From contig CP099847.1 in assembly GCA_030062745.1 (NCBI GenBank), positions 3,394,304 through 3,458,303 on the forward strand: DNA of 64,000 bases, in the 5' to 3' direction. Each line of letters begins with the position of its first letter. Within the stretch, counting starts at the first letter, position 1. A program made the translations under genes and the position numbers. The notes under the pieces are model-generated. The model saw only the letters and a list, made by a program, of their open reading frames with translations. It made no database searches and was not told where the DNA came from. This document shows positions 16,085 to 55,990 of this stretch, piece by piece. The DNA is from Capitulum mitella. Taxonomy: Eukaryota; Arthropoda; Thecostraca; Pollicipedomorpha; Pollicipedidae.

Positions 16085-16259
16085 ATGGCGGCGGGTCCGG
16101 AGAGCGGCGTGCACCGCACGTTCTACCAGCTGCCGGCGGCGGACGGCGCCGAGTCGGGCCCCGGCCGGCCGGCGGACCCGACCGCCCTGCTCCACTACGT
16201 CCGGCAGCAGACGATCGGCCGGGACCGCAGCTTCCTCGGACCGTTCGGACCGAACAGGG
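16085..16259 (+). CDS. fusion gene exon 1 (start codon)
   Basis: The first in-frame ATG has a good context (GCGATGG). The exon encodes 58 residues, including LLHYVRQQTIGRDRSFLGPFG, plus one base, and ends at G|GTGAGC. No transit peptide is obvious. The AG at 16080-16081 could be an acceptor, so this exon may begin as early as 16082. Confidence 0.75.
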
Positions 16260-19200: not shown

Positions 19201-22200
19201 GTACCTACCGCCGGGGGGGGGGGCAGGGAGGTGGATCGGCCAACATTGGCGAGCCGCGGCCGGCCCTGATAGTGGACTGCGCCCGGCGGCTGCGTCTGAT
19301 ACGAGCCCATCTGTCAGCGGGCTCAACCGCGCGCAGTGCGGGGGAGGCGGCGGGGACGGGGTGGCGCGCCGGCCAAGGACAGACGTACAGCATATCGGGA
19401 CAGCGCGGGAGAAAGACCAGGGGCAGACCAGGGCGTGAGCCCAATGCCAGTCGGTGTGGATGGGCCGGACGCAATTGACGGAAAAAAGGCGAAACGTGTG
19501 TCCACGGGCACAGCGATGAAGAGGGCGTGCGTGTGGGTGGCAGTCATTGAGAAACGGAGCGGCGCGGATACTGTGCGTAAATACATTGTCTTTCTAGTTG
19601 TATCGACGCTGAAGTGGTGAATCGCATTCCGCAGTGGCCGCGGGATATTGTCATGTGGTAGGATAATATGGTGGACGGGTGCCAGCCGTCTTGTACCCTT
19701 GGCGCGTCGTTTGGGACCGTGCGTTTTGGGATTCTGGGCGGCAGGTGGGGTCGGAGGGTTGTTCCAGCGATTTCTCTGAGGGTCGTGACGATGTCGGCCG
19801 TGCTGTCAGGGAACGTGACAGAACGTGCCGAGCTGACCTGTGGGACATGACGTCCGGAGGAGACGGAACTCGCCTAGCCATGTAAGATGTCCGGGACCGC
19901 CTCATGACCTTTGTTGGTAACGTGGCGCTGTGTGCCGGGTTGGCCTGTGTTAACTGATTGCCTGATTGCCTTTCGTGGCGTGGCGCTAGGACACTTGACA
20001 CGTCATGGCCGGCTTACACCAGGGAACAGCGAAAGGGCCGAATGGACTTTGCATAAGCTGATGCCGTTCGGCCGTTTAAGGTGCCCAAGTAGTAGCCCGC
20101 TATCACGAGGAACCCTGGGTGGAGTTTAGGGCTGATGGTATCAGCCATGCGCAGCTGCTGTGTGACTGCGCAGAGAACCTCAGGTGCCCGTTGTATACAC
20201 CGTGTACTGGTGAGGACACTGCCCACCGTGTGCAGTTTTCCGTCCAAATTGTGTCGTGTCGGGAAAACGTATGTATGTTGCCGAGCCATGTATCGTTTCT
20301 TTATAGCCGGCAAATGTATGACCTGTTTAGTTTGGCGCCTCACGTTCAGGAGCGTCATGCATCGCGGACGTCGGGGGCTAATGAAATGCTGCAGACCCTT
20401 GCATTACCACGGGGTCGTTACATGCTGCCCTGCCGGTGTCCTTGCCCGCCAGCACGCTGTCGTCAAGCATATCATCCCGGAGAAGCGCACTGACTTTTGC
20501 GAGATGTGACCACGTTTCGGTGTGTCGGGAGGGTTTTCCGGTGTGTTTTTGGTCCGGAGGCGTCATGTTATCGAGGGACATGTGTCACGTCCAAGCCTGA
20601 TGCACCAACACTGGCTGGCGTATGGTATTCGAGCGTTACGAGACCGGACGCATTCCTTCTGGAATTCTTCAGTAGTCTTCTCCTTATATGGGAGCGGATA
20701 GTTCCATTACACCTTTCTGTGCGAAGATGAAGGATGGGCTGAGTGTGTCATCTGTCCATCGAAGTGGATAATGTGGAAAGTTTAACGCTTGTCGGTGTGT
20801 CTGGTTTACAGTCGACCGTTTTGCCACCGGCTGTGTCGGCGTCACAGCAGACTAGACTGCTGGCTGGCGGCCTCCGTGCTGGCTGCATGGATGGGGTCCG
20901 CATCTCTCTACTTCCGCCCGAATAATTCTGCAGCCGTCCGCTCTGTTTGTTTCTGGGAGTCTGGAGTATTGCATAACGCGTTTTGTTATCAAGAGACCCT
21001 CGTGTGGTCGGGTCATGTGCGAGTGTGTGTTCTGGTTACTGGTTCTTTCCGCTCGTTTTCTGCCGCCGGTGAGCTGAGACTGTGGTGATTTCAGCCGTCT
21101 ACTGCGACCACACGGCGTCCGGCAAGAGTCTGCGCTTCATCGAGGACTACATCCGAGACGAGGTGCTGCCCACCTACGCCAACACGCACACCACGTCCAC
21201 CCACTCGGCCCTGCAGACCACCTCCTTCAGGTGGGAGCGGACGGCAGCCGATACGCGGCGTGGCGCGCGTGTGGCGGGCGGGCTCTGCGACGGGTGAGAA
21301 GTGTGTTACTGTCCAGTGGTGTTCTGCATTCGACAGTCATTCACGCTCAGCATCAGAAGCCAGCGGTCGTGTTTCTGTGCATCAAACGCATTCGGACGCG
21401 GCCGCCCGGTGGATGCTCCTTCCGTTTTCAACGGCGAGCCTCAAGACCACGATCCTTGCTCCTTGGTCGGCCGGCCCTAGCTGGGCCCTCCCTGAGCACC
21501 TGTCCTGGCCCTGACCAGCCCGTCCCCGGGCCCTGACCTGCCCCTCCCCGGCCCTGACCTGACCCTCCCTGTGCGCCGCCGGGGCCCTGACATGACCTCC
21601 TGACGGCGGCCGGCCGACGCGGTCGGCTCGGCCGTCGGCCGGCCGTGTCCGCCTGGCCGTCGCCGCCGCGCCGGACCGGTTTGCCGGCCGCTGTTTTTAT
21701 CGCGGCTGCAGCCGACCGACCAGCCGGCCGCGGACCGGCGCCAGCCGTGCCGCGCCGGCTCGGTCCAGTTCGCGCGCGCGCCACCGGCAGGCGACGGCAC
21801 GCGCCGTGGGCGGCACGCGAGGCGCGGAGGGTCTGGGAGGGGAGGAGTTGCGGGGTGGGCAGCTGGCGCTGTAGCGGTCCCGTGAGAGACGTGAGATTCT
21901 GCTGTATTGCGACACCGCAGTATGGGACAATACGTTTGATGTGTGTCCGGCAAAACATCGCGACAGGGGTCTTACCACGGCCCCAAAAGGTCAGGGAAGA
22001 CGGAAAGGTTTCGGCGTCTTTCTTTGGGAAGGACAGAAAGTATTCACTTGGCTTTTCGTCTGCATCTGCCGATAGATGTGTTTTTTCTTTCTTTTTTAGA
22101 TCGTGACACCCCTTGGTCCCCATGGCGACGCCCACGTATGCCGGCGTTGTGCACTGTGCTGTGGATCGCCTGCGATATTGTCCTGCCGCTCCGGCGCCGC

Positions 22201-25200: not shown

Positions 25201-28200
25201 CTCGAATACTTGACGAGGTTTTCTTTTCCCAGTCCCATGTCAGTCTCCGTTTTTCTTGTGCTGCTTTCCAATGCTGTTTGCAGGCCCCCGATTTGCAGAC
25301 TTCGTTTACGTTGAATGATACGTTGATGGGGGCGTTCTCGGCCGCACGGCACTCTGTAAGCCCGACCACGGCGCATGGGACTGTGTCCGGTCTGCTGACG
25401 TCAGCGACGCCGGCAGGGCCGTACACGAAGATAGCGATGAACCCGGTGGTGGCCGGCCTGGACGCGGGGCTGACGCAGAAGGACGCGCTCTTCTTCTCGC
25501 CGCACAAACTGATCGGCGGCGTGCAGACGCCCGGTAAGCAGGCCCCGGGGCCGCACCGTTCACGCCCGGTGGTGTGCCGCTCAAACGTGCTCGGATACAC
25601 GGTTCACACCGAGTACGGAATGTCCTTAGTCGATGGGTCCGATGCGACGCACCCAGCTGTTACAGCCATTACGTGTTATCGTCTGTCGTGTGTGTTTTCT
25701 CGCTGGTGCGTTGTGCTTTTCGTAACGAGCGATAAAAGAGCCCAGGTCCTTCGGAGTGCACGACAGGCGCATCTGCTTATTGTACAGCGTGCTGTTCTGG
25801 AGTCATGGGATGTTGACATTCTGGAGATGCCGTATGCCTGCGTTTCTGATAAGGAAGTAGGGAGGTCCGTTGGTTGGTTTTGACCGTTGGTTACTTGCCG
25901 ACTTACGTCGTGCTGTTTCACTGTAAACGCGGAGCGGTCTTAAAACCGCGACGTGAGCGGCCTGCGCACCTCAGTCGCATGGCCCGGCGTCCCGGGTTTT
26001 ATGTTTCTCCAGACTTTGGCTGGATGCCACGAGCGCAGCCCGACCCAACACCGCAGACATGAACCGTCCGTAATCCCTGCGGAGGCCCAGTGCGCATCAC
26101 GCTGCGGTCACGTGACCCGTCTGGATGGGTGCCGGCTGCGCGCGGTGCACGCGAACCTCGCTGAGGTGGGGCAGGGTGCGGCGTACGCTGCGCCCGATAC
26201 GGCCCGTACAGCACGGTCCGTGGCCGGGATCGGGTCGGTGTCGGGCGGTTGCCTTCGTCTTACGAGCGCGGCGTGCCGATCCGCCGGCGTCTGCGGGCGA
26301 CTCTGGCTCGTAGCCGGCGGTCGGAGGGAGCTGTCAGCGGCGCGGGGTGTGGGACACTGCTCTGGCCGCAGCCCGGCGGTCTGCACGTGCTGTACTGGCT
26401 GCGGCGATCAGCCGCGGCCATGGTGGCGTGGATCCGGCCGCCGGTGTAGGACATCTGCTGCGCTGCAGACGGCTCAGGAATCCAAAGCATTGACCACGCA
26501 GGACCGGTTTATAGGGAAACATGAGACGGCCCGGACTCGAATGGTTGTCCAAATTACTACGGTGGCCTTGAGTGTCGTAATTCGCCGTGTCGCGCGGTGT
26601 TGTCGTTTGCCGTGTTTTTTTAACGTGCGCCGGTTCTGCTGACGGCAGGTGTTCTGGTGGTGAAGAAGAGGCTAGTGCGGAACAAGGTGCCGGATGGCGG
26701 CGGCGGCGGCACCGTCTTCTTCGTCCGCCGGCAACACCACCGCTACCTGCAGGCAGGTTTTGCACTCAGCTGACTAGAGCTCTCAAGGTTCCGCATTTCG
26801 AAAAGATGACCAAAACCAGCACGTAAAAATAGAGCCAGCGATACAAACACAAATAGAGCACAGGGCGAGTTCGCCGAACTTTATCTTCCATCTTGCCATG
26901 GCGGTGCTGTTTGGGCATTTTGTGAGTCAGGAATCTGCTTTGTAAACCTGTCTGGCCGGTTGTCGCGCGATGGCTGATGTATTGTGGCGGACTGACCGTG
27001 ATCAAATTAAACATCGTGCACGGCGCAGGAACAAAGCCGCCAGCCAGATTTGTCAACTCGTTACAAAGCATGCCTTGGAGTAGAGCGCCCTGCTTCGTCA
27101 CTTATTGAAGCCATCGCCGGGACGGAGCACGTGAACCGTTAAAAATTCGGGACGAAATATTCGGCATGCTTTCCGTGACCCTCAGTGCTTGCAGCAGTTC
27201 AGTGCGTGCGTGGCGCAGCTTGTTCATGGGAAACTTCTGCTTCGCCGGTAGCAGTGGCTGTCGTAGCGTTGGCAGGATGGGCCTCGTCATGCCCTCGCCT
27301 GACGTCAGTCTGTTCGCGCAGATTTTTTTCTACGCCGTCAGTCGAACATTGGACACCCGAGTTGCGTCCCTGTGGGTGGTTGTGCTGATGGGTTCATTGC
27401 GTTCCCGTTGAAAGTTTGCTTGTATCTGTGTGGACAGTGAGCCTTCAGGATTGGCGAGGTAGTGGGCTTTCTGAAGCCTCAGTTTGTTGAGTTAGAGGCC
27501 GTTGACCGTTGAGTTAGATTCGTTGAGTTAGAGACAGTGTCGTCGTGTGGTGCCGGGTGGGGTGGGGTGGGGATGGGGGGTGTCCGGGTGTACGGGGACC
27601 TGACGGTGCGGTCCTTCGCCAGGACGTGGAGGCCCGGGAGGAGGGCGGGACGCCCGGCATCGTGGAGTCGATCCGGGCCGGCCTGGTGCTGCAGCTGAAG
27701 GAGGCGCTCGGCCCGGACCACATCCGACTCTGGGACGACGCGATCGTCAGGTGAGTCGCCCTGACCTGGCTCAGGTCAGGCGGAGCGGCGCCACGGCCCG
27801 GCAGGTCGTTGGCGGCTGTTCGCCGACCTGCTTAGCCAGCCGTGCCGCCCCGTCCAAGTCGGCCGTCCCTGTCGGCCTGTCCCCGGCGGCCCGTCCCTGA
27901 CGGCCGATCCCTGGTGATCCTACCCTGGTACCGGCCCGTCGCGGTACTCGCCCGTAGCCAGCGCCGACCCCTCAGCCCGCTGGAGACCAGCGGAGGTCGC
28001 TGGCTGGTCCCGGCGGCGGCCGGCTTTCCCAGGCGGCGGCCGACGCTCCGCCGGCGCTGAACCTCGTCGGCGCCGCCCGGCCGCCGCGGTGACCTTGCGT
28101 GTGTGGTGACGTCATGCCGTGCTGCCGGCTCCCACGGTCTGTGTGCGGGCGGCGCCGGTCGATCTGGACGGAAGAGGGCGCGGAAGCTTTCTCTGTATGT

Positions 28201-31200
28201 GTGTGTGGGGGAGGGGGCTGTCAGACGCGCTGTGTGCCCAGTGTCGGCTGTCCTCTGGCAGCGCTCCTCCCCTCTCCTTCCCCCTGTGGCGTCATCACTG
28301 ACGTCCGCCCCGGGGCGACCTGCTGGCTGACGCTGTTCTGAGTGGCCCGTGGAAGACCGGCCTGACGCTGTTCTGAGTGGCCCGTGGCAGACCGGCCTGA
28401 CGCTGTTCTGAGTGGCCCGTGGCAGACCCGCCTGACGCTGTTCTGAGTGGCCCGTGGCAGGCCCGCCTGACGCTGGTCTGAATGGCCGTGGCAGACCGGC
28501 CTGACGCTGCTCTGAGTGGCCCGTGGCAGACCGGCCTGACGCTGTTCTGAGTGGCCCGTGGCAGACCGGCCTGACGCTGTTCTGAGTGGCCCGTGGCAGA
28601 CCCGCCTGACGCTGTTCTGAGTGGCCCGTGGCAGACCCGCCTGACGCTGCTCTGAATGGCCCGTGGCAGGCCCGCCTGACGCTGCTCTGAGTGGCCCGTG
28701 GCAGACCCGCCTGACGCTGGTCTGAGTGGCCCGTGGCAGATCCGCCTGACGCTGGTCTGAGTGGCCCGTGGCAGGCCCGCCTGACGCTGGTCTGAATGGC
28801 CGTGGCAGACCGGCCTGACGCTGCTCTGAGTGGCCCGTGGCAGGCCCGCCTGACGCTGGTCTGAGTAGCGGCCGCAGGACTCATGAGACCTGGCGTTTGG
28901 GTACGTGCGATTTCAGTCAGGACGAACTCTCGGAAACTCCAATAACCGGCGTAATGATGGCGAAGTAGACCGATATTGGTTCCGGGGTTCTGGACTGGAA
29001 ATATGTGTTCGAGAATGGACGTCTCATATGTTGATGACAAACGCTGGAGAATTGTCAAGAGCAGACGGAATGGACAATCTTTCCGTCAGGCAGCCAGTAA
29101 GGCTGTCCGTCGTCGTGACACGAAAACGGCTGTCTCGCTACCCAGTTTTACAATCATATCACTTAAGAAGATCGATATCGCGGGAAAACGAACGGTTAGA
29201 CATTCGAGTTGCTAAAGTTGCTGATGGTTCATGGATTGCTGCTGATTTTTGCAATTCACGTAGCTCATGCTATAAGCTAAAAGTACTAACTGGGGAATAA
29301 TAATGTGTAGGGAAAACGAACGGTTACGTATGAGACTAAATCATCTGTCTGGTGTGCACCACATTTGATTTCTTCGCGTCGTTTTGAAAGGTCTGTCATC
29401 GGCGGGCATGGCAAAGTTCTTTTAAATCGTAATTTCAGTTTTCCGGTGTGTATTCCATTTTTAAGCAAGATATGTGCGTGGTTCCAATGTGCTTGCCTGT
29501 GTGTGTAGTTGTGCGGATGTTTCCTTCGTCGCCGTTCGTATGACATGCGGACTACTGCCCTTGGTAGCCGCTGATCTCCGCTTACGTAACACATCTGTTC
29601 CGTTTCGCATGGTTACCGCGCGCCGGGCTCATGTGGGGACTGGTCGTTTCTACCTTGTTTATACTGAGGTGGCTTTACTGCTGTCCGACAGTGTAAGTTG
29701 GGCGGACTCTGTGCCCCGGTCGCCTGCCGTCCGGACCTTTTTTGTGCCGTAATTACGTCCAATAAGGCGGACTGACGGACGTTATCGTGCGCGGTGACGC
29801 CGGTGGTCTCTGCCGCGGTCGCTGTTCCTGAGTCGGTCTGTCGCACCGTCTGAGAGGGCCGGGCGGCGGGAGCCGTACTGGGGACGATGGCGCCGTGAAC
29901 AACTTGTCCCTCTCCGTATATCTCGAGTGACTGGGCGGGCGGCCGGCCGTGGACGGCTGCTGCCCCGATGACGTCACGGGGCCAGGCCGTTTCGTGTGTG
30001 TACATATGAGCTGTGCTCGGCAGGCGGGTCGTCGGCCGGGGAGGAGGGTTTTTGTCGTGGCCCGGCCGTCTGGCGGCCGTGGTAACAGCTGTTCGGTCGT
30101 CCTTGCCACCTCACTGAGGTGACCTGCGTTGTTGATATTCGTCGTTGGGATTGCCCCGGGTCATGTCAGACCGTGGTTGAACGTGAGGACGGGTGCCCTG
30201 AGTTAGATACGTCTTCGGCTCCTGTCTGCGTTTTGTTTGGCGCAGACAGGAGCCTTGTTTGGCCAGCGTATGTTTTCCAGATGTTGACGCCACTTGGAAA
30301 TGGCTTCTAGACGCTTCGGAAAATACCCGACTGTAAAAGGCTGTGTTTCCTCAGTTACCCTGATGTCTCGATCTACGCGTGTTTTGCGCTTTACTGACGT
30401 GCTTCTCGCTCTGTGTGCGCCTGTCATCTTGGCTAGTTAATGACTTTAGCTTATGCCTCGTTTGTGTCCGCGTCTGCCTGACTGGGTGCGCTGTCTGCCG
30501 GTAGCCGGTTCCTGCGTGAGGTCCGCTCCATGCCCCACCTGGTGCTGCTGGGACCGCGCGCCTCGCCCTGCCCCCGGCTGCCCATCTTCTCCTTCCTGGT
30601 GGCGACGCCCAGCGGCGCTTTTCTGCACCACAACTTCGTGGCGGCGCTGCTGAACGATCTGTTCGGCGTGCAGTCCCGCGGCGGCTGCGCCTGCGCCGGA
30701 CCGTACGCCCAAGACCTGCTCGGAATCGACGAACAGCTGGCCGCGCGATATGAGCACGTGCTCATCGAGGACAGGTGACGTCATCGGGCCGGGTGGTGAT
30801 GTCACTGGTGCTGAGGTGTGGCGTGATCGGGCAGCGTGGACCGCTGCAGTGGTCACCGGGCGATGTAGAACCTGTTTATTTTGTACCGGTCGCGTGTTCT
30901 GACGTACGTCGTTGACAGGTACATGTACGAGGCTATGTTTGGAGTGTGATCGGAACCACTGTGATATTTTTGGTCGGTCTGTTTTAGGCATTTGTTAGAC
31001 TGGTTGCCCAAGGTACAATGAATTTTTGGATGTCTAGGAATATAAAAGTATTGGCTTATCCCATTGTATGTGATCTATTGTTCATCAGTTGTATTATCCA
31101 GTTGTATTGAAGCCGTCACGTCCCTGTTTGGTGTCGTGTCCGCCAGGCCGGGATGTCTGTTCTGTTTGGTGTGTGTACCGGCTGATGGTCTGTCTCGGGC

Positions 31201-34200
31201 CGTCCGAGCCGTCTCTGTCCTGACGTCGGACGCCCTCTGACGTGCCCCTCTGACGTGTGTGTGCCGCCTGATGGTCGGTCTCGGGCCGTCCGAGCCGTCT
31301 CTGTCCTGACGTCGGACGCCCTCTGACGTGCCCCTCTGACGTGTGTGTGCCGGCTGATGGTCGGTCTCGGGCGTTCCGAGCCGTCTCTGCCGTCACGTCG
31401 GACGCCCTCTCTGAGTCCCCCGTCTGCGCGCCGCCCTCAGCCGGCTGGACCGGACCCACCTGCGGCGTCAGGGCGAATACTCGTCCTACGAACTGCTGCG
31501 GCCCGGCTTCACGCGCGTCACGCTCAGCTACCTGCTGACGGAGGACGAGCTGGAGCACGTGATCACCGCGCTCAGGTGAGCGGAGCGGCGCCCACAGGTG
31601 GTGGGAGAGCATGATGAGCTCTGTTCTCCTGGTGAGCCGGCCTCGTGAGGCCTTTGGTGAAGGTGGGGCGGACTGAGACCGGTTCCAGTGTGCGCGTGAC
31701 TGGTGGCTCGGGCTCCGCCGCTGTTGGTTGACCGCACTTGTCTGGCTTCAGGTTGGTGAGCGAGGAGGGCTGGAAGCTGCTGCCGCAGTACAGAGTGAAC
31801 CCAGAGACCGGCGAGTGGAGGCACCATTCCAACATGGTGAGCGGATTGGAGGGTAGCGCTGCCGAAACAGGGGCTCACGAGGAGTTTGAGTTGACGATTT
31901 ATGCATGTTTTCGTAATGACTGTTAGGATTTGGCTTCTGACGGTGCTGTTGCTTCTTCTGACAAGTTACTGTGGTATGATTGGGCATCCGCCTCGTCTGG
32001 CTGCGTCTCGACGACCCTTCGCCCGCCAGGCTCACACACGCGTCCCAACGTCTCCACGCTTTATTTCCGACTGCCGCCGACGCCGACTGCCCCCGAACGC
32101 CGTCGCACATGTCGGCCTGAAACCCGATCTGCGTCCGGGGTCGGCTCCTCAGCCCCGACGTTAAAATAACACTGTGATGGCTAAAACTAAATGATGGCGG
32201 GGATGGCCCTGACTGAATCCAGGGTCGGCACACGTGGTGACGACAGGGCGGCCCCGCTCACCAACAAAGACCACAGTTACGTGCCAGTTAATTTTTGCTG
32301 GTTAAAGTTCGCATTGGATATTGCACGCGTGGAACCACGTAGCCTCAGGTGTCTCTGTTCAGTTGCCAGTGATTGCGAACTTGAAGGCTCTTAATGGGGG
32401 AGCAATCTGCCCTTGCTGTTCCTTGACGTTTATGCCATCATAAGGTGGCCTGACGACTTGCATTTGTTTCGTATTTGGTCTACGATCGAGATTAAACAAA
32501 CGTGGGCTCAGGACATGACCTGATCTAGGGCGAGGTAATGGCCTGATCTGATCCTGACAGGGGCAGACCTCACTGACCTGACCCGAAGTCAGTTGTCACC
32601 TGTACTTAAGTCGGAGCCAATCTGTGCTGAGATTGTATCTGATCTGGCCTGAGGCCGGAGCTGGCCTGACCTGACCTGAGACCGAAGCTGACCTGACCTG
32701 GGGCCGGAGCTGACCTGATCTGGGACCGGAACTCACGTGACCTGAGGTCGGAGCTGACCAGGCCTGAGACCGGAGCTTGCCTGGCCTGACGTGAGGTCTG
32801 ACCTGACCTGACTCAGTCTCTCCTGCGGCCAGGTTCTGAAGGAGCGCCGGTGGCTGGGCGATATCCGGTACACGGCCGGTAGGATGGAGTACCGGCAGCG
32901 GACCTCCCACCCCCCGGCGCCAGACCTGCACGGCTGCCAGGCGCGGGCCCGCGCGCACATCGCCAACGCCAGGAAGGTGCGGCCCGCCGCTGAACCTCGA
33001 CCGTATGCTGGGACTGAGGTTGTGTCCCGACGATGTTTGTGTTATCTTAGCTTGGGCCGAATATTGGTCGGGTTTCTTTCCAATCCCATATCTTCTTCAG
33101 ACGCATTCCATTGCATTTTTGCTCACGTTAAAGGCAATGCAGACTGTGTCCTTTTTTATTTCATAGGCAGTAATACTATAAATATTGCACCAGATTGTTT
33201 TTGGCGCGTTTGCTTGGCACCGTTCAAGCCCCGCGAAAAGGTCCAGCTTTAGATCTTTATATCCATTATAATGTCTGCAGTATTATTAGGCATGAAGCTC
33301 CTGAAAATGAGTAGCTATTAAACAGGCACATGTGACCTGCATCTGACCTTTACCGATGACCGTGCAGTCGTCATCATGTGACTGAGCTTCCGCCCTCCTG
33401 TGACGGTGCCGGATCACTCTGCCGCGCTGTGTCCGAGGCCCAGCTGCCCTGTGTCATTGTGACCACACCGCCGCGTTGTGTCCGAGGCCCCGCTCTCCTG
33501 TGACGGTGTCTGATGACACCGCCGTTCTGTGTCCGAGGCCCCGCCCTCCTGTGACGGTGTCCGGCGGCCGTCCGCAGAACTGTCCACGCCAGCTGGCCGA
33601 CCACCGGGTCATGTTCGACGCGTCCGTGGCCGAGCTGCGCTGGTTCCTGCTGCCGAACGAGGCCAAACTGATGCTGCACGGCACGCCGGCTGACGCTGAG
33701 TCCGCCGTTCAAGCCGCGGGTCAGTACAGACGGAGCGCCGCGGAGTGGAGGCCGCGGCGGCCGGGGCTGCGGTCGGTGTCTTTCTTCGGTTGGCAGCCGT
33801 GGGGAGTAGGTTTTTGGGATTCGGAGGAATTGTTATTAAAGCTGGTGGTTGATATTTGTGTTATTGTGTTGCGACAACGACCATATAGAAACCGATAAAT
33901 ATAGAAATATAGAAACACACAATGTAGGAACCGACACGTCAGTTTCCGCATAGACATTTTACAGTACATTTTGGCGTCTCGAATTCTCGGCCCAGTTGTC
34001 TTGTTTTAATATCGCGTTGTAATTGCTGTCATATCATTTTAATATGACAAGACGGAAGCGTTTTTTTATGAATATGAAAGCTTCCCTCGACTTGCTACGA
34101 CTTTCTAGCGCCGCACAGTGCGCGGCTTGATCTCGGCGTTGAACTCTGCGTACAAACTGGTTAAGCCGCACGACTATGAACGTGGCCGCTCAGATCCGTG

Positions 34201-37200
34201 TTTTGTATTGTCTGTCGTGTTTACGTAAAGCCCGTCAGTTTACGTCGCACCGTTGACGGCCGTGTCCCGGCCGCAGGTATACTCTGGCCAGTCTCGGCCG
34301 GCGCTCGGCCGGCGGCGGGCCCTCTCTGAGAGCCGCGAGCCGCCCGCCTCGGCGCGGCCCAGCCGACACGGCGCCGACGGCCCGCCCTCGCCGGCGACGC
34401 CGCCGCAGCCGGCGGCCGCCGGCGCCGTGTCGGCGCAGTACGCCGGCTCGCTGGACCGCGAGCGGGGGCGGCCGACGCGCGCGCCGCCGGCCGCCGCCAC
34501 CACGCCGCCGGCGGCGGCGCCGCGGTCGGCGCACCTCAAGCAGCGCGCCATGAGCGTCTCGTGCGGCACCGACCGGCGCCTGTCGGACACGCGCTTCCTG
34601 GCGCAGGAACTGCACAACCTGTTCTTCAGCGGGGCGCGCGCCGGCGCCGCGCTGCGACGGCACGGCTCGGCCGGCCAGATGCCGGCCGCCTCGCCGCCGG
34701 CGCGGCCCGTCTCCGGCGACCGGCGCAGCTCGCCGGACGGCGCCGAGAGCCGGCCGCCGGCCGCCGCCGAGGCGGTGCCGGCCGCGCCGCACCGCTCCAG
34801 CTCGGCGGCCGCCGCGCTGGCCGGCTCTCCCGGCCGCCGCGTGGTGGCTGTGTCTGTGGTGGCGCAGCGGCCGCCGGCGCCGGTCGCATTCTCGTTGAGC
34901 GTTGAGTCGGACCCGGGCAGCGTGGACGCGGCCGCCAAACCCGGCGGCGGCGGCCCGGCGGCGGATGACGGCAAGAGCGATGACGTTTTCGATCGGCCTG
35001 CGGCCGGCAGCGGCCCCGCTGAGGTCGCGGACAGCTGTACCAGGGATGTCGGTGATAAGAGTCAGGTGGCATCCAAGGACGGCGGAGAAACTGAAAACAC
35101 TGACGACACTCAGGCTGCAGGTAGTGACGGCAAACCTTCTGTCGGTGACAGCAGTGAATGTGCAATCTTGGACGGCGGTGAAACAAAAAGTCAAGTTTCG
35201 GGAAGTGACAGCAGTGAGTCGCAAAGTCTTGATCGTGACGGAGCGAAAGTCAGTGCCGTAAGTGACACGAAAACCAATGGCGCCAGTGCGCCGCAACCCA
35301 GTGCAAAAGGCGTTCCAGCCCGTGACGTTAACGAGTCCAAAGTAGCCGACGCCTCTAAACTCGCGGCCGTCGGCGCCGCTGCCGCGAAGATCAGTGACGG
35401 GTATGAGGCGGACGTCAGTGACAATAACCAGCCGGAGGGCGGCGTTGATGGCGGAGCCAGGCGACAGTGACGGCGGTGAGGCCAAGATCAAGCAGTCCCC
35501 GCCGGCTGCGGTGGAGGGGGCGGCGCCAGCGAAGCCGGCAGGGCCCGCGTGGCATTCGCCCCCGCGCCCCATCTTTAAGAAGGCCGCCGAGGTATGTGGC
35601 CGACCTGATCTGTACTAGTCAAATTCTGGAATTCCGTTCGGTAAAAACGTGTCGATTTTCCGTCATCTTTCGCTGTAATGCAGACCCGTGCGCTCCCTTG
35701 TGTCTTTGCGGCCGCGTCAACGAACCGTTAAGTGATTCCTACTCTGGATGTTTTCATTGTCGAAATGGTGCACGTTGTATGATCTGTTTTATGTGTTCTT
35801 TTATGGTTTACCACTGACGCACGCCCCATTTTGAGTAGCTCGCTCTAACTTTGTCATGCGATGCGTGATATAACATGTGTAGGATATGCCAACCCGTTTC
35901 TGTTCCCATTTGTGACGATATCCAACAGCCCTGTTATGGCGTGACCGAATCTGACCACAGCTGCGTGGCCCGACATGACCTGTCGTGACCCCACATCTGT
36001 CCGACCCGACCCGCCCTGAGCTGAACCGTCCGCGTGCAGGCGATCGAGGAGTTCTCGATGCTACGGCCGGACGACCGCGTGCTGGTGTGCCTGTCTGGCG
36101 GCAAAGACTCGCTGTCGCTGCTGCACGTGCTGCGCCAGTACCAGTTCGTCTCGGCCAGCCGCGGCGCGCCCTTCCAGCTGGCGGCCGTCACCGTGGATCC
36201 GCAGAGCAGCGCGTACGACCCGCGCCCGCTGGTGCCCTACCTGGCCAAGCTGGGCGTGCCCTACTTCTACGAGGTGCAAGGTTCGTGTCATTTGGTTGCC
36301 GTCGGTCATTAGCGGTGCTGGTGTTGGAGCTGAATGGATTATTGGGGGAGTTGTGGGAGTGAGTGGCGATTTTCTGTCAGACCGTGAAAAATAACCCGAC
36401 GGTTTTGTTCATATTATGGGGTTACCCGACGTCTTATGTCTGAAAGTGACTGCAAATAAGACGCGTGAATCATTATAATGTTTGCTGCTGTCCGGAGCTC
36501 TGTTTATTCTAGGTATGAGCTGTTGTCGGTATTTGGTCGTCATAACACCATATTCCATGTTTTTGCGAGCGGAATTCTCAAGTTGTCGGAATTGAAACAA
36601 CTTCCACCAAATGGAAGCGGGCTGATATGGTATTTGTACTGGTTTCCGGCGATAAACATTCCGTAACGTCTAAATCATGTTTTGCTTTGTTAACGCTCCT
36701 GGCATGTGAAACAGCCCAGTTAGGGCGGTGCTGTTATCGTTTTCAAAGATTGGCGCTGACTCATATTTCCGCTTCGTGTGCGATTCCATGGGAGCTGTAT
36801 TTGTTTTGTTGAGACAAGGGATACGCTGGAGAGCTGTGTTGAGCATGTTTCCTGAAATGCGGTATCCACTTCGTCATTGGATTTTTATTTATTCCTGACT
36901 CGCCCATGCCGTTTTGTTCACTCTGCATGCGCTAACCATTATCGGGAGGTTGTTCTGCTTCCTGAGTTCGCCTTAAACACTGTTGACACGTTTGACACGA
37001 GCTGCTGGGTTCTGCGATATCCTCGGCTGTTTTGGTCACGTGCTGCTGACCCCTGCAGTACTATACCTATGAAGTTGCCATGTCCGACACACGTGTCGGT
37101 GGCGTCTGCCCGGCCGTCGGTCCTGCCTGACCGCCGTCGGCAGGCCGCCATCGCGCCGGTGCCGTCTGACCATTCTCCCGGCCGCCGCCGGTGCCGTCTG

Positions 37201-39424
37201 ACCATTGTCCCGTACCGCCGCCAGTGCCGTCTGACCACCGTCTTGTTCCGCCGCCAGTACCGTCTGACCATTGTCCCGTACCGCCGCCATTGCCGTGTGA
37301 CCACCGTCCTGTTCCCCCGCCTGTGCCGTCTTACCATTGTCCCGGCCGCCCCCTCTGCCGTCTGACTGCGGTCCCGGCCGCCACCGGTACCGTCTGACCA
37401 TCATCCCGGCCGCCGTCGACAGGCATTCTGCAGCAGGCCGAACAGGTGGACTGCAGCAGCATCTGCAGCTTCTGCTCCCGCATGAAGCGGGGCCGGCTGT
37501 ACGCCGCCGCCCGCCGCCAGGGCTACAACGTGCTGGCGTTCGGCCAGCACCTGGACGACATCTCAGAGAGCTTCCTCATGTCCGTCTTCCACAATGGCCG
37601 GCTGCGCACCATGAAGGCCTGCTACGCGGTGGCGTGAGTGCCGGCCGGGTTTCGAAGGGACGGCACGGCCGTCTGAACGGCGTTGAGGCGGGAACTTGCT
37701 GGGTCATTGGTCCCAGGGGATGTTTTTCAGGCAGTGCCACGACTCGGCTCGCTGGGAACTGGCTTGTTTTCTGGTGACATGCTTCCCGCATTATTTCTGC
37801 AGTTTTCAGTGTCAAATGGCCAGGGATCGGACTGATTCTGCTTTGTCGAGAAGCTAACTATGCTAATTTTGACATTTTCCCGACAAAGTCACTGAACATT
37901 GTTCCACTAGCCACTGTCTGTACTCCACCGTTGTGACTGCCGCCCGTGCGCGGTATTATGGGCTGCGGTCGTCGTTGGTGGCGGCGGGAGGGCCGGCTCA
38001 GTCGGCGGCCTGTCGGCGGTGTGCGGCCGGCGGTCAGTCGTGGCGCGTGCCTGCAGTGAGAAGGACCTGCGCGTGATCCGGCCCCTGATCTACGTCCGGG
38101 AAAAGGAGCTGCGGCAGTTCGCCGAGTCGCGCCGCCTGCCGGTCATCCCCGAAAACTGCCCGGCCTGCTTCGAGGAGCCCAAGGTCAGTCGCCGGCGCTC
38201 GATAGCGTATCAGCTCAAACGAGGCCTGTCAGCTGTTCAAGCTGATATGCGCGGGAGAGACCTAGTGTTGAGCGTGAGCCGATGTGATCTGTCCTAGCAT
38301 TAGACGTTCCGTGAGTGCCCGTTGGCGTCACCACCACCATCTTAAAAGATGGCACGGGATCCTAAAGATTTCCTTGTGATTGTGTTTTTTTCGGGCATCT
38401 TGTTTCTTTACGGAGGCCAACCTTGTTCAGCGTGTTTTAGACGTGAGGGGGATGGGGGTTATTCAGGCCAGTGATTACACTCCTAGGTGAATGGATAAGG
38501 GTCGCTGGTCGTGTTTTTCATGCCGCAATTTTCGTCTTTTCAGTTGTCAGTTTCAGTTGTATTATTTCAGTTAAAAAAAGTTTCACGTTATCGTCGGAGG
38601 TCCGTACTTACGCTGTCTGACGGACGTTCGACTTCGATAAATATGATCCGGCCACGTCAGGTAGATCAGGAGCTTTAAGGTGGCCTCAGCTTATATCAGG
38701 CGATGAGTAATTAAGTCGGTAGATCCGTTAAGCTATGAATACAGGCACGCAGAGTGGCCACAAAGCTGCGCGATGATATACGAGACAGTTGTATCAGTTG
38801 TATCAGATGAGGAACGACAGCTGTCGAGTTCAAGGATACATCGGCGTACGCAGTGGGTAAGTATTGTCCCGGGGTACGCGATATTCATCCGAACTCCGAT
38901 GAATTCGCTTGGAGGCCTACTGGTGCAAGGGGCAAGGCTTTTGCATATGTTGCTGTGTCTCTCGGGAATCACCACGACCGTGGTTGACGAAATCGAGGTT
39001 GTTTTAAGTTTTGATTGATAACGAAAGCCTTGGCGGGCAAGGCGAGCCTGCGGTGTGTGATTGCACACTATGACTAAGTTTCACTCTTGCGATAGGCTAA
39101 TCTCCAATCTCCAGCACTTCTGGCCCCCGTTTCCCGCTCCCCCCGCGACGGTCGTCGCCGGACCTGCCCGGCTGACGTGGCCCCCGCCGGCAGGAGCGAC
39201 ACCGTGTGAAGCAGCTGCTGGCGCAGCAGGAGGTGCTGTTCCCGCACCTGTTCGAGTCGCTGCGCTCTGCGCTGCGCCCGCTCTACGTCATCGACCGCAC
39301 AGGCCTGGAGAGCAGGCTGTTCGGCCGGGCCGGCGCCGACGCCGATCACGACGACGACGACGACGACGACGAGCCATGCGGCGGCGGCGACCGGATGAGA
39401 TGCCCAGACTCGGCTGCAGCCTGA
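16085..39424 (+). CDS. fused class-V aminotransferase (cysteine-desulfurase-like) / TtcA-type PP-loop tRNA thiolase, 17 exons
   Basis: Exons are 16085-16259, 21095-21230, 23132-23327, 24343-24553, 25417-25533, 26649-26752, 27623-27750, 30505-30774, 31441-31575, 31752-31836, 32833-32976, 33578-33719, 34239-35591, 36040-36280, 37423-37633, 38057-38183 and 39194-39424. The N-terminal half (about residues 58-565) is a fold-type I PLP enzyme: the aspartate of VVWDYATAG, the Schiff-base lysine of FFSPHKLIGG, and the candidate persulfide cysteine of RGGCACAGPY. A low-complexity linker covers about residues 614-1065. The C-terminal part (about 1066-1334) is TtcA-like: PP-loop SGGKDS, cysteines in CSSICSFCSRMKRG and ENCPACFE, and RPLIYVREKELRQFAE. 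Known TtcA proteins make 2-thiocytidine in tRNA with an Fe-S cluster and sulfur from a separate desulfurase. Here donor and thiolase would be one chain (inference). All junction phases agree except for one extra base in exon 13. I trust the architecture more than the exon 12-13 join or the linker frame. Confidence 0.88.
16260..21094 (+). other. intron 1 (phase 1, 4.8 kb)
   Basis: Donor GTGAGC, acceptor GATTTCAG. It contains the TAACACAC minisatellite at 17735-18195, a T-run at 16475-16490 and a G-run at about 19211-19220. No other exon was recognised inside, and open frames here have no family motif. Confidence 0.7.
17735..18195 (-). repeat. intron 1 minisatellite (about 20-26 bp unit)
   Basis: More than fifteen imperfect copies of a unit with core CACAGTAACACA followed by GCGGCCC (plus strand), variable in length. 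Minus-strand reading frames of up to 191 codons here (VCYCG repeats) are products of the repeat. Confidence 0.9.
21095..21230 (+). CDS. fusion gene exon 2
   Basis: Encodes YCDHTASGKSLRFIEDYI and VLPTYANTHTTSTHSA, the conserved N-terminal signature of this class-V aminotransferase group. It starts after TTTCAG (phase 1) and ends at TTCAG|GTGGGA (phase 2). Confidence 0.93.
21480..21605 (+). repeat. CCCTGACCTG-rich tandem repeat in intron 2
   Basis: Several imperfect copies of a unit around CCCTGACCTGCCCCTCCCCGG near the 5' end of intron 2. The long minus-strand open frames across it are composition artefacts. Confidence 0.7.
22905..23131 (+). repeat. intron 2 minisatellite reaching the acceptor
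   Basis: About five to six degenerate units of about 39 bp share the cores ACCGTGTGCTCGGTGGGTGTT and GGGACGTCCTG or variants. The last unit contains the real acceptor GGGTGTTGCAG followed by GGACGAGG, which aligns with GGGTGTTGTGGGACG in an earlier unit. Confidence 0.7.
23132..23327 (+). CDS. fusion gene exon 3
   Basis: Encodes RDEARLIVRNSVQASEHDA, LFCGSGATAAVHKLIGLL and GPYEHHSSLLPWREAAAE. The glycine-rich GSGAT is the expected PLP-phosphate region. The exon enters in phase 2 and leaves in phase 0 at GAG|GTGGGT. Confidence 0.93.
23755..24342 (+). repeat. intron 3 minisatellite built from the exon 4 acceptor
   Basis: Twelve copies carry GGACCCTGTTCACCTCTCC or close variants, at alternating spacings of about 43 and 54 bp. 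The longer units contain CGGTCAGGTGGTGCGTGTGT, matching the true junction CGGTCAG|GTGGTTCGTGTGCC of exon 4. The array is effectively a tandem amplification of the 3' splice site plus the first about 25 coding bases. Confidence 0.9.
24343..24553 (+). CDS. fusion gene exon 4
   Basis: Encodes VVRVPEDPVTGGVSLPDLEA, TLVACFSAASNVTGLVTS and HGGLVVWDYATA. The aspartate of VWDYA is the residue expected to contact the PLP pyridine nitrogen. The start was chosen at the phase-0 CAG that gives AEVVRVPEDP across the junction. A later in-frame AG at 24359-24360 is possible but would drop the conserved VVRVPE. Confidence 0.9.
24554..25416 (+). other. intron 4
   Basis: Phase 1 intron, donor GTAGGAG, acceptor GCCGGCAG. 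A partial duplicate of the exon 4 end (CGGCACGGCGGCCCGGTGGTCTGGGA) lies at 24599-24624, just inside the intron, so exon-derived duplication also occurs at this 5' edge. No other gene was seen. Confidence 0.7.
25417..25533 (+). CDS. fusion gene exon 5 (PLP lysine)
   Basis: Encodes GPYTKIAMNP and DALFFSPHKLIGGVQTPG. The lysine in SPHK is the predicted Schiff-base lysine. Phases 1 in and 1 out; donor CCCG|GTAAGC. Confidence 0.94.
26649..26752 (+). CDS. fusion gene exon 6
   Basis: Encodes VLVVKKRLVRNKVPDGGGGG and TVFFVRRQHHRYLQ. The only phase-compatible end is CAG|GCAGGT, a GC donor. The nearest GT (26757-26758) would shift the frame of exon 7. Confidence 0.88.
27623..27750 (+). CDS. fusion gene exon 7
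   Basis: Encodes DVEAREEGGTPGIVESIRAG and LVLQLKEALGPDHIRLWDDA. EAREEGGTP is a conserved family motif continuing RYLQ from exon 6. Ends in phase 2 at GTCAG|GTGAGT. Confidence 0.94.
28320..28866 (+). repeat. intron 7 minisatellite, 35-bp unit, about 15 copies
   Basis: The unit begins CCTGACGCTGTTCTGAGTGG and continues CCCGTGGCAGACCCG, with few substitutions and one-base deletions in two copies. The homogeneity suggests recent expansion. A 408-codon minus-strand frame across it is an artefact of the period. Confidence 0.95.
28867..30504. other. remainder of intron 7
   Basis: No exon or other gene was recognised. Near 30219-30252 there is a short inverted repeat (GGCTCCTGTCTGCG ... CGCAGACAGGAGCC). 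The acceptor is GCCGGTAG at 30497-30504. Confidence 0.6.
30505..30774 (+). CDS. fusion gene exon 8 (candidate catalytic cysteine)
   Basis: Encodes RFLREVRSMPHLVLLG, LPIFSFLVATPSGAFLHHNF and SRGGCACAGPYAQDLLGI. The cysteine of RGGC or ACAG occupies the position of the sulfur-accepting cysteine in cysteine desulfurases. Phase 2 in and out. Confidence 0.93.
31150..31400 (+). repeat. intron 8 minisatellite, about 85-bp unit
   Basis: Nearly three copies of a unit containing GGTCTCGGGCCGTCCGAGCC and GACGTCGGACGCCCTCTGACG. The last, degenerate copy leads into the exon 9 acceptor CCGCCCTCAG. Confidence 0.9.
31441..31575 (+). CDS. fusion gene exon 9
   Basis: Encodes RLDRTHLRRQGEYSSYELL and RPGFTRVTLSYLLTEDELE. 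Part of the C-terminal small domain of the aminotransferase. Phases 2 in, 2 out. Confidence 0.92.
31752..31836 (+). CDS. fusion gene exon 10
   Basis: Encodes LVSEEGWKLLPQYRVNPETG followed by EWRHHSNM. GWKLLPQY and the TGEWRH motif are typical of this family's C-terminus. Acceptor GGCTTCAG, donor ATG|GTGAGC, phase 0 out. Confidence 0.92.
31837..32832 (+). other. intron 10 with CCTGACCTGA-type repeat
   Basis: The 3' part, 32636-32820, is a degenerate array of GCTGACCTGACCTG and GGCCGGAGCTGACC units directly before the acceptor GCGGCCAG. No gene was seen in the rest. Confidence 0.75.
32833..32976 (+). CDS. fusion gene exon 11
   Basis: Encodes VLKERRWLGDIRYTAGRMEY, RQRTSHPPAPDLHGCQAR and ARAHIANARK. 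Closes the aminotransferase core. Phase 0 at both ends. Confidence 0.9.
32977..33577 (+). other. intron 11 with about 54-bp repeat at 3' end
   Basis: From about 33395 to 33577 three to four units contain CTGTGTCCGAGGCC and CTCCTGTGACGGTGT. The last one ends in the acceptor CCGTCCGCAG. The first part of the intron is AT-richer and holds nothing recognisable. Confidence 0.8.
33578..33719 (+). CDS. fusion gene exon 12
   Basis: Encodes NCPRQLADHRVMFDASVA and LRWFLLPNEAKLMLHGTP. It links the aminotransferase to the linker. The donor GCGG|GTCAGT leaves phase 1. Confidence 0.82.
34239..35591 (+). CDS. fusion gene exon 13 (long low-complexity linker, frame break)
   Basis: The start at 34239 (after CCCGTCAG) is the acceptor that fits phase 1 and keeps the long open frame. 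The better-looking GCCGCAG at 34269-34275 is out of phase. The first part is Ala/Pro/Arg-rich, with a more ordered segment around SDTRFLAQELHNLFFSG. The second part is Ser/Asp/Gly/Lys-rich with recurring DGGE and SDSSES patterns. The initial frame ends at TGA 35468-35470. The frame one base later carries EPGDSDGGEAK ... RPIFKKAAE and joins exon 14 in phase 0. One extra base between about 35400 and 35468, or a short unrecognised intron, explains this. GTAAGT at 35258 is a candidate donor. Likely an intrinsically disordered tether. Confidence 0.7.
36040..36280 (+). CDS. fusion gene exon 14 (TtcA PP-loop)
   Basis: Encodes AIEEFSMLRPDDRVLVCL, SGGKDSLSLLHVLRQYQF and VPYLAKLGVPYFYEVQ. SGGKDS is the PP-loop that binds ATP and adenylates the target base in TtcA/TilS-type enzymes. 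Phase 0 in, 1 out. Confidence 0.95.
36281..37422 (+). other. intron 14 with 33-bp minisatellite
   Basis: From about 37125 to 37422 about nine units contain GCCGTCTGACCATTGTCCCG followed by TACCGCCGCCA. The final unit ends in the acceptor GCCGTCGACAG. Several units carry their own GCCGCCAG. No gene was seen in the upstream part. Confidence 0.88.
37423..37633 (+). CDS. fusion gene exon 15 (TtcA CxxC)
   Basis: Encodes CSSICSFCSRMKRGRLY, GYNVLAFGQHLDDISESF and LMSVFHNGRLRTMKACYA. The CSFC pair sits where TtcA proteins carry Fe-S cluster cysteines, and GQHLDD is the conserved motif after it. Phases 1 in, 2 out (GGC|GTGAGT). Confidence 0.95.
37634..38056 (+). other. intron 15
   Basis: Phase 2 intron, acceptor CCTGCAG. 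Nothing else was recognised. Confidence 0.7.
38057..38183 (+). CDS. fusion gene exon 16
   Basis: Encodes EKDLRVIRPLIYVREKELRQ, FAESRRLPVIPENC and PACFEEPK. IRPLIYVREK is a TtcA hallmark, and CPAC supplies the likely further cluster cysteine. Donor AAG|GTCAGT, phase 0. Confidence 0.95.
38184..39193 (+). other. intron 16
   Basis: Phase 0 intron of about 1 kb, acceptor GCCGGCAG. No repeat array like those in other introns and no gene seen. Confidence 0.7.
39194..39424 (+). CDS. fusion gene exon 17 (C-terminus, stop)
   Basis: Encodes ERHRVKQLLAQQEVLFPHLF, ESLRSALRPLYVID and an acidic tail with eight consecutive GAC/GAG codons, ending at TGA 39422-39424. KQLLAQQE follows the CPAC motif as in TtcA-like eukaryotic proteins. 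Confidence 0.92.
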   Translation, partial: ERHRVKQLLAQQEVLFPHLFESLRSALRPLYVIDRTGLESRLFGRAGADADHDDDDDDDEPCGGGDRMRCPDSAAA

Positions 39425-43070: not shown

Positions 43071-43787
43071 TCACCGTCTCGTCCTGCCGGCGAAGCAGCA
43101 GGCGGTGGCGGCGGACGCCAGGAACACGACGGTCAGCGCCACGGCCGCGCCGCCCAGCAGCCAGCCCTCGTCGGTCAGGAGCTGATGCGCCGCCGCCAGG
43201 CAGCCGCGGCTGAAGAACGAGTTGGCGTTGGTCGGCGCGCTCTGGCAGGCGGCGGCCGTGCCGTTCTGCAGCCGGCGGCAGCAGCTGACCGGCACCGCCG
43301 TCTCCAGCGAGCCGTTGCGCGCCCAGTCGAGCCCGTTGCGGACGCCGCAGCAGTGAAAGCCGGCCTGCAGCAGGTCCCAGGCGCGCGTGACGTCACCGTC
43401 GGCGCCGTAGCTGTCCAGCGAGTCGAGCATGGCACTCTCCAGAGAGCTGGCCTCGGGGCCGACCACCAGCAGCGCGACCGCCGCCGTCAGCACGGTCAGC
43501 AAGCCCAGCAGCACGCACAGGCAGCCGAACGTGATGGCCATGCAGCGGTTGCGCAGCTGCGCGGCGCCGACGCCCAGCAGCGCCATCAGCAGCAGCAGGC
43601 CGCCGGCGACCGTCAGCAGCACGGCCGGGCCGCGCGCCAGCCGGACGCCGGCCAGCGCGGCGGCGCGCGCGCCATCCGCCACCAGCGCGTCCGCCCCGAC
43701 CACCAGCAGCAGCACGCCGCCCGCCAGCAGCAGCAGGCCGACGGCCATCAGGCTGACACGCAGACAGTCGCGCCGGATGGGCGTCAT
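43071..43787 (-). CDS. tetraspanin, single exon
   Basis: The product is 238 residues from ATG 43787-43785 to TGA 43073-43071. Four hydrophobic segments are visible: about residues 12-37 (LMAVGLLLLAGGVLLLVV), 58-83 (LLTVAGGLLLLMALLGVG), 88-114 (FGCLCVLLGLLTVLTAAVAL) and 206-232 (AAVALTVVFLASAATACC). The large extracellular loop has the tetraspanin CCG motif (FHCCGVRNG), then SCC and further cysteines (AACQ, RGC), and glycosylation sequons NGS and NGT. It is presumably a membrane organiser, but the ligand is unknown. The Ala/Leu-rich, high-GC coding matches the neighbourhood. It is convergent with the fusion gene. An open frame continues 34 codons upstream without another ATG, so this start is preferred. 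Confidence 0.9.
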   Translation of the reverse strand: MTPIRRDCLRVSLMAVGLLLLAGGVLLLVVGADALVADGARAAALAGVRLARGPAVLLTVAGGLLLLMALLGVGAAQLRNRCMAITFGCLCVLLGLLTVLTAAVALLVVGPEASSLESAMLDSLDSYGADGDVTRAWDLLQAGFHCCGVRNGLDWARNGSLETAVPVSCCRRLQNGTAAACQSAPTNANSFFSRGCLAAAHQLLTDEGWLLGGAAVALTVVFLASAATACCFAGRTRR

Positions 43788-54518: not shown

Positions 54519-54716
54519 TTCCCCGGCGGCACCCCCTCCCCCTTGGCGGGACTGTTCGACAAGGGGTCACCGTTCTGAGAGGACAATGTACATCAACCGC
54601 ACTCCACGACACACAAATAGCCTCCTCGCTTACGGTCAATCAGCGTTTCACGGTAAACCTGGTCCGCAGTCCGACTGCAGAAGCTGGAGACAGAGCGCGT
54701 CCCAGTTCACCTTACT

Positions 54717-55703: not shown

Positions 55704-55990
55704 GGCGCCGGCCCTGCATGACCGCGCGCGGCACGACCGCCCTAGCCGACCACGGCCTGAGTCCGCCTAATGGTCTGCCAGGCAGGCTGCAGTGGTGGCC
55801 GCTCGCCTTGGCCCGGCGCTAGGTCACGGTCGAGCCACCGCAGCGGGCTTCGGCGGAGAGCGGTTGAATGGCACATCGGTGCGCTGACTGATGGTCCTCA
55901 GCGCCACACCTCTGCCATAAGCGGTAGAACGGAGAGGCGGATGGCAAGACGGCGTCCATCCCACCGCGCCGGTATCGCCATGTAAAAGTC

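What the first reader, a model, noticed from the sequence alone, without database searches (positions are those of the whole stretch)
16085..39424. Cysteine-desulfurase-like enzyme fused to a TtcA-type tRNA thiolase in an animal gene
Seventeen exons with matching phases join a PLP class-V aminotransferase (SPHK lysine, RGGC cysteine) to a PP-loop TtcA domain (SGGKDS, CSFC, CPAC). In bacteria TtcA receives sulfur from a separate desulfurase (IscS). Animals are known mainly for the CTU1/URM1 route to thiouridine. A self-contained donor-plus-thiolase chain would be a distinct tRNA (or other RNA) 2-thiolation system in a metazoan. The substrate is not shown by the sequence.
Basis: partly seen in the sequence, partly recalled or inferred. 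Interest (0 to 1): 0.8.

Follow-up and report, generated by a model that had tools for sequence, protein, structure and literature searches.

The report
Animal gene fusing desulfurase with thiolase
One animal gene appears to encode, in a single chain, an enzyme that takes sulfur from cysteine and an enzyme resembling a bacterial one that puts sulfur on transfer RNA; a protein with the same two parts was already noted in a parasite, but neither protein's action is known to have been tested.

Summary
Window 16085-33719 carries twelve exons for a complete class-V PLP enzyme, 39-49% identical to bacterial stand-alone proteins. 36040-39424 carries four exons for a TtcA-like PP-loop domain. Exon-wise searches of the 477-Mb genome found both halves only here; a CTU1 homologue lies elsewhere. 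The PLP lysine, the cysteine that aligns with SufS (second C of RGGCAC, not the first), SGGKDS and both CxxC motifs are present.
The weak point is exon 13. Frames match only if it starts inside a longer, partly coding-like stretch (34277-35470) that lies in another frame, so the exon 12-14 join is plausible but unproven.
The architecture is not unprecedented: a 2022 paper reports class-V aminotransferase and PP-loop regions, in the same order, in one Toxoplasma protein and named it TtcA. None of 88 bacterial loci I fetched holds a TtcA gene.
Most likely it is a self-supplied RNA thiolase: persulfide from the first half feeds an Fe-S PP-loop half. The substrate (tRNA C32?) is inferred. A review assigns s2C to bacteria and archaea only, so 2-thiocytidine in this animal would be a real surprise and is directly testable.

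The parts
16085..33719 (+). N-terminal half: 12 exons (16085-16259, 21095-21230, 23132-23327, 24343-24553, 25417-25533, 26649-26752, 27623-27750, 30505-30774, 31441-31575, 31752-31836, 32833-32976, 33578-33719), 614 aa class-V PLP enzyme
25497..25508 (+). SPHK motif; lysine K270 codon 25506-25508, aligned with the lysine of CsdB/SufS (its role as Schiff-base lysine is recalled knowledge)
   Evidence: sequence; alignment; 89 of 89 relatives
30677..30694 (+). RGGCAC: C417 (30686-30688) and C419 (30692-30694); C419 aligns with the CA of the SufS/CsdB active-site stretch
   Evidence: sequence; alignment; 89 of 89 relatives
26753..27622 (+). intron 6, GC donor (CAG|GCAGGT)
34277..35591 (+). linker region: acceptor 34277 (9.9 bits), partly coding-like low-complexity frame 34277-35470, then a different frame (35461, 35530 or 35542 to 35591) that joins exon 14; frame break unresolved
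36040..39424 (+). C-terminal half: 4 exons (36040-36280, 37423-37633, 38057-38183, 39194-39424), TtcA-like PP-loop domain
36094..36111 (+). PP-loop SGGKDS
   Evidence: sequence; invariant in A2
37464..37475 (+). first CxxC (CSFC)
   Evidence: sequence
38157..38168 (+). second CxxC (CPAC)
   Evidence: sequence

Best explanation
One gene encodes a two-domain enzyme. The N-terminal PLP domain (SufS-like, of a bacterial stand-alone subfamily) removes sulfur from L-cysteine and holds it as a persulfide on C419. The C-terminal TtcA-like domain binds ATP by SGGKDS, adenylates the C2 position of a pyrimidine in tRNA, holds an Fe-S cluster on three of the four CxxC cysteines, and inserts the sulfur passed on within the chain or dimer. 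A linker, probably disordered, joins them. The likeliest product is 2-thiocytidine at tRNA position 32. Shown: domain identity, motifs, order, and no second copy found. Inferred: the splice across exons 12-14, desulfurase activity, cluster, sulfur relay, substrate and base. It is an extra system beside CTU1, not a replacement.
For: Pfam and NCBIfam hits for both halves. K270, D235, C417, C419 and R471 invariant in 89 of 89 relatives (80 genome loci, 8 plasmid loci, 1 viral-collection contig). EHHS and ASNVTG were search patterns for the genome loci, so their conservation is partly by selection. The TtcA alignment keeps SGGKDS, CSxCSR and the second CxxC; passages say cysteines 122, 125 and 222 of TtcA are needed for cluster and function (PMC5372745). 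Both halves collinear and found only here. Exon 12 ends at a 7.2-bit donor not used to train the matrix, and both halves share codon-position composition (GC3 0.909 and 0.904). Toxoplasma TGGT1_294380 has class-V aminotransferase stretches followed by a PP-loop (PMC9420914, passages). An artificial B. subtilis MnmA-YrvO fusion complements loss of MnmA in Plasmodium, so thiolase and desulfurase can act in one chain; B. subtilis MnmA alone succeeded in one of four attempts (PMC10219651, passages). Of 8 plasmid loci with a relative, 5 have an Lrp/AsnC regulator nearby, 3 an MBL-fold hydrolase, 1 a TauE/SafE exporter, 2 an aminothiazoline-carboxylate hydrolase, which suits cysteine metabolism.
Against: No transcript was available, and the exon 12-13-14 join has a frame problem. 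The TtcA score of 196.8 is under that model's cut-off of 272 and the SufS score of 104.5 is under 475.1. The glutamine that SufS/CsdB has beside PLP is T238 here and A in 84 of 89 relatives. None of 88 bacterial loci has a TtcA gene in the fetched DNA, so bacteria give no independent functional link. A review assigns s2C to bacteria and archaea only (PMC7694415, passage). The lack of AATAAA between the halves means little: the first one after the stop codon is 3.4 kb on, at 42804.
Confidence: 0.55

Rival explanations
1. Two neighbouring genes: a class-V PLP enzyme ending after exon 12 or in intron 12, and a TtcA-like gene with its own start (for example the ATG at 35448 in the TtcA frame) on the same strand.
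For: The TtcA frame has in-frame ATGs at 35403 and 35448; the frames of exon 12, the 34277 stretch and exon 14 do not chain; an ATTAAA lies at 33835; the bacterial relatives are stand-alone.
Against: Exon 12 ends in a donor, and an exon starting at the 34277 acceptor needs an upstream exon; the same order of domains is in one Toxoplasma protein.
Confidence: 0.22
2. One fusion protein, but the N-terminal PLP domain is not a cysteine desulfurase for the thiolase: it catalyses another reaction on cysteine or a related amino acid, and the TtcA half takes sulfur from NFS1 or free persulfide.
For: Glutamine beside PLP replaced; relatives lie in amino-acid-catabolism-like clusters in some plasmids; SufS model score far under cut-off.
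Against: The cysteine and lysine that align with SufS are conserved in 89 of 89 relatives; the fusion itself suggests coupling.
Confidence: 0.25
3. One fusion and a working thiolase, but the product is not s2C32 (for example 2-thiouridine at another position, another RNA, or a small molecule).
For: Relatives of the same superfamily act on other bases (TtuA, NcsA; weaker hits to both); no substrate evidence in the sequence.
Against: TtcA is by far the best profile (196.8 bits against 54.1 for TtuA and 28.3 for NcsA).
Confidence: 0.35
4. A decaying pseudogene of an old fusion.
For: Apparent frame breaks in the linker.
Against: The 16 domain exons are open in the frame used, motifs intact, GC3 about 0.9 in both halves.
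Confidence: 0.06

Closest known systems
Toxoplasma gondii TGGT1_294380 ('TtcA', PMC9420914)
   Same: class-V aminotransferase stretches N-terminal (62-149, 571-719) and one PP-loop domain C-terminal (1353-1528) in one protein (passages)
   Different: longer chain; its sequence was not compared here; no functional test of it in the passages seen; a very distant eukaryote
Bacterial TtcA (tRNA 2-thiocytidine synthetase)
   Same: SGGKDS, CSxCSR, second CxxC; 31-37% identity to four bacterial rows (two annotated ttcA, two taken by similarity only)
   Different: stand-alone; takes sulfur through IscS (passages); window score under the NCBIfam cut-off
Bacterial stand-alone 'aminotransferase class V-fold PLP-dependent enzyme' subfamily
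   Same: 39-44% identity to 8 plasmid rows and 42-49% to 80 genome loci; RGGC[SA]CA motif; C-terminal extension with LRWF in 4 of the 8 plasmid rows
   Different: not fused; no TtcA gene in any of 88 loci fetched
SufS/CsdB cysteine desulfurases
   Same: lysine, EHH and active-site cysteine align
   Different: best E among solved chains 1.2e-21; PLP glutamine replaced; SufS score 104.5 against cut-off 475.1
CTU1/NCS6 with URM1
   Same: PP-loop with cysteines
   Different: separate homologue at G000:C3:746556, with NcsA as best hit of 2 of 4 pieces and zn-ribbon_14 on a third; TtcA is best here

Membership tests
TtcA | PP-loop SGGKDS | tested here: met
   invariant in the 5-row alignment
TtcA | two CxxC motifs (three cysteines bind the cluster) | tested here: met
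   C107, C110, C197, C200 invariant; role of cysteines from passages
TtcA | NCBIfam NF007972 score at or above 272 bits | tested here: not met
   196.8 bits
TtcA | [4Fe-4S] cluster and s2C32 formation | not testable with these tools
   biochemistry needed
cysteine desulfurase (SufS-like) | PLP lysine and catalytic cysteine aligned | tested here: met
   K270 and C419 against solved SufS/CsdB chains, (roles recalled)
cysteine desulfurase (SufS-like) | glutamine beside PLP (recalled as a feature of SufS) | tested here: not met
   T238 opposite Q in the CsdB alignment; A in 84 of 89 relatives
cysteine desulfurase (SufS-like) | TIGR01979 score at or above 475.1 bits | tested here: not met
   104.5 bits
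cysteine desulfurase (SufS-like) | desulfurase activity | not testable with these tools
   assay needed
fused Aminotran_5 - PP-loop architecture (as in Toxoplasma) | both domains in one chain, PLP domain first | tested here: inconclusive
   collinear halves found only here, but exon 12-14 join unproven
CTU1/NcsA | best profile NcsA and C-terminal zinc ribbon | tested here: not met
   NcsA 28.3 bits against TtcA 196.8; zn-ribbon_14 not among the Pfam hits

The most novel reading that the evidence does not exclude
Animals of this lineage carry a complete, single-chain RNA 2-thiolation system (cysteine desulfurase plus TtcA) that makes 2-thiocytidine in eukaryotic tRNA, kept since an early eukaryotic fusion shared with apicomplexans and lost in most studied animals.
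Probability: 0.35. Interest if true: 0.85.

Novelty: new variant of a known kind. Interest (0 to 1): 0.62.

Why it matters
A review passage assigns 2-thiocytidine to bacteria and archaea only (PMC7694415). An animal gene with both a sulfur-mobilising and a thiolating half makes the question 'do some eukaryotes make s2C, and with a dedicated sulfur donor?' directly testable by nucleoside mass spectrometry and knock-down. A built-in donor would also be a natural example of sulfur passed within one chain instead of through IscS or NFS1 and carrier proteins.

Tried and rejected
The same search found TtcA in 4 of 4 TtcA loci, but those had been fetched by similarity to the same query (two annotated ttcA, two not), so the control is easy.

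Recent transfer from a bacterium: the tree of 90 rows puts the window protein on a long branch (2.94) in an unresolved fork. No donor can be named, and the tool warns about long branches.

Conserved gene neighbourhood among the 88 loci: clustering gave no neighbour in more than 6 of 88 loci, but the ORF picker chose the opposite strand at the core gene in 31 loci, so this test is weak. The plasmid gene tables are incomplete by the tool's own note.

Viral origin: one scan of viral contigs gave 1 relative of 28 pattern matches, a stand-alone frame at 30% identity with no TtcA hit in the stretch held.

Single exon 13 from 34277: rejected as an in-frame join. Intron inside 34277-35591: the donors (over 4 bits) and acceptors (over 3 bits) listed gave no phase-correct bridge when I checked them by hand; not exhaustive.

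Not answered: whether CTU2 (PF10288) and NFS1 (TIGR02006) are in this genome; the genome search was busy each time. Structure prediction was not run because the tool, by its description, takes only proteins read directly from the DNA, and this one is spliced.

PF01171 over the genome gave 0 matches, since the gene is searched exon by exon; the protein query then found the exons.

Full report
What is there. The window is eukaryotic DNA with introns; it lies at C9:3394304-3458303 of a 477,042,490-base genome in 16 contigs. The barnacles Capitulum mitella and Pollicipes pollicipes have 16 chromosomes, and C. mitella assemblies of 463, 478 and 512 Mb are reported (PMC8416341, PMC11331182; passages), so a barnacle is my guess; no call names the organism. 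Exons 1-12 (16085-33719) translate without a stop to 614 residues, and exons 14-17 (36040-39424) to the second half, with GT-AG borders except one GC donor.

First half. Pfam Aminotran_5 E=3.8e-32; best NCBIfam model SufS E=5.4e-30, 104.5 bits against a cut-off of 475.1. tblastn finds relatives in 171 plasmid records, 79 of them covering at least 80% of the query in one place, best 44% identity. The C-terminal extension with LRWF is shared with 4 of 8 plasmid rows, so exon 12 closes a complete domain. K270, D235, C417, C419 and R471 are invariant in 89 of 89 relatives. In the alignment with solved CsdB/SufS chains C419, not C417, meets the catalytic cysteine, and T238 stands opposite glutamine. 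The roles of these residues are recalled knowledge.

Second half. TtcA model E=4.8e-58, 196.8 bits (cut-off 272); TtuA 54.1 bits; NcsA 28.3 bits. Against four bacterial rows (two annotated ttcA, two by similarity only) SGGKDS, CSxCSR and the second CxxC are invariant at 31-37% identity. Passages in two reviews say that TtcA has a PP-loop and that three cysteines hold a [4Fe-4S] cluster (PMC5372739; PMC5372745).

Genome context. With the first half as query the genome gave 14 matches: 12 here, one per exon, and two weak ones elsewhere (E=0.08 and 6.2). With the second half it gave 5: 4 here and one at C3:746556, E=0.19. That locus is a CTU1 homologue: NcsA is the best NCBIfam hit of 2 of its 4 pieces (TtuA and TIGR00269 of the others), and a third piece has zn-ribbon_14 at 1.2e-15. 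So no second copy was found, within the limits of a best-candidate search, and the window gene is not the animal's CTU1.

The weak join. Exon 12 ends in phase 1 at donor 33719 (7.2 bits). The acceptor at 34277 (9.9 bits) opens a 397-codon stretch that needs phase 0. Its first 600 bases look coding: GC by codon position 0.795, 0.735, 0.95, and log-odds 0.26 per codon against -0.37 and -0.25 in the other forward frames. But one reverse-strand frame scores 0.20, the second half of the stretch scores -0.07, and the true exons 0.55. The acceptor at 35011 (10.7 bits) is in phase but its frame meets stops at 35259 and 35343. The TtcA-side frame is a third frame, phase-correct from 35395, 35419, 35461, 35530 or 35542; only the last two starts score above 3 bits (6.1 and 6.0). 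The splice matrix was trained on 15 introns of this gene itself. A repeat (CAGTGACGGGTATGAGGC at 35392, CAGTGACGGCGGTGAGGC at 35465) recurs 73 bases apart and reads SDGYEA in one frame and SDGGEA in the other; 1 of 60 simple shuffles gave such a pair, a test chosen after seeing the repeat. This suggests one long coding linker with small frame breaks in the assembly or allele, but a short exon 13 or two genes also fit. No AATAAA lies between the halves; this says little, as the first after the stop is at 42804, and one ATTAAA does lie between, at 33835.

Bacterial context. Of 8 plasmid loci, 5 have an Lrp/AsnC regulator, 3 an MBL-fold hydrolase, 1 a TauE/SafE exporter and 2 an aminothiazoline-carboxylate hydrolase within 7 kb (the gene tables are incomplete). 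By general knowledge of these families this suits cysteine or amino-acid catabolism. Wider neighbour clustering was weak. None of 88 loci has TtcA in the DNA held.

Prior art. Passages of PMC9420914 say that Toxoplasma TGGT1_294380 has one PP-loop domain (1353-1528) and two class-V aminotransferase stretches (62-149, 571-719), and the authors named it TtcA. PMC5749711 lists TGME49_294380 as a putative cytosolic thiouridylase (passage). A krill transcriptome paper lists a transcript annotated TtcA (PMC3714250, passage), so a crustacean TtcA-like transcript has been reported. My searches (open-licence PMC papers only; listings, few of which I opened) brought up no paper on an animal fusion of these domains. 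An artificial MnmA-YrvO fusion works in Plasmodium (PMC10219651, passages).

Verdict. The finding is real and more than chance. The best reading is a self-supplied TtcA-type RNA thiolase encoded by one gene. The fusion in this animal is likely, its chemistry plausible, its substrate unknown. It is a new variant of a known kind, shared in outline with Toxoplasma.

Noticed in passing
window 43071-43895 (-): Open frame with a Tetraspanin domain (E=1.8e-29), the nearest other recognised coding frame downstream among those I scanned.
   Followed up: partly
window 53226-54566 (-) and 54717-55766 (-): Reverse transcriptase and endonuclease frames of a LINE-like element.
   Followed up: no
window 6355-6909 (-): Weak DDE_3 transposase frame (20.4 bits, under the cut-off of 28.6), mariner-like.
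   Followed up: no
window 28327-28866: 35-base tandem array, about 15.5 copies, inside intron 7.
   Followed up: no
L089 5962-7290: A 306-kb contig of the viral collection encodes a stand-alone 442-residue relative of the first half (30% identity; Aminotran_5 E=4e-44).
   Followed up: partly
L106 (G000:C3:746556): CTU1/NcsA homologue of the same genome with C-terminal zinc ribbon.
   Followed up: yes
L003 1-11648; L004 203-11744: Relatives of the first half sit in a cluster with an Lrp/AsnC regulator, ABC transporter, FAD oxidoreductase, L-2-amino-thiazoline-4-carboxylic acid hydrolase and M20 aminoacylase, a possible cysteine-precursor route.
   Followed up: no
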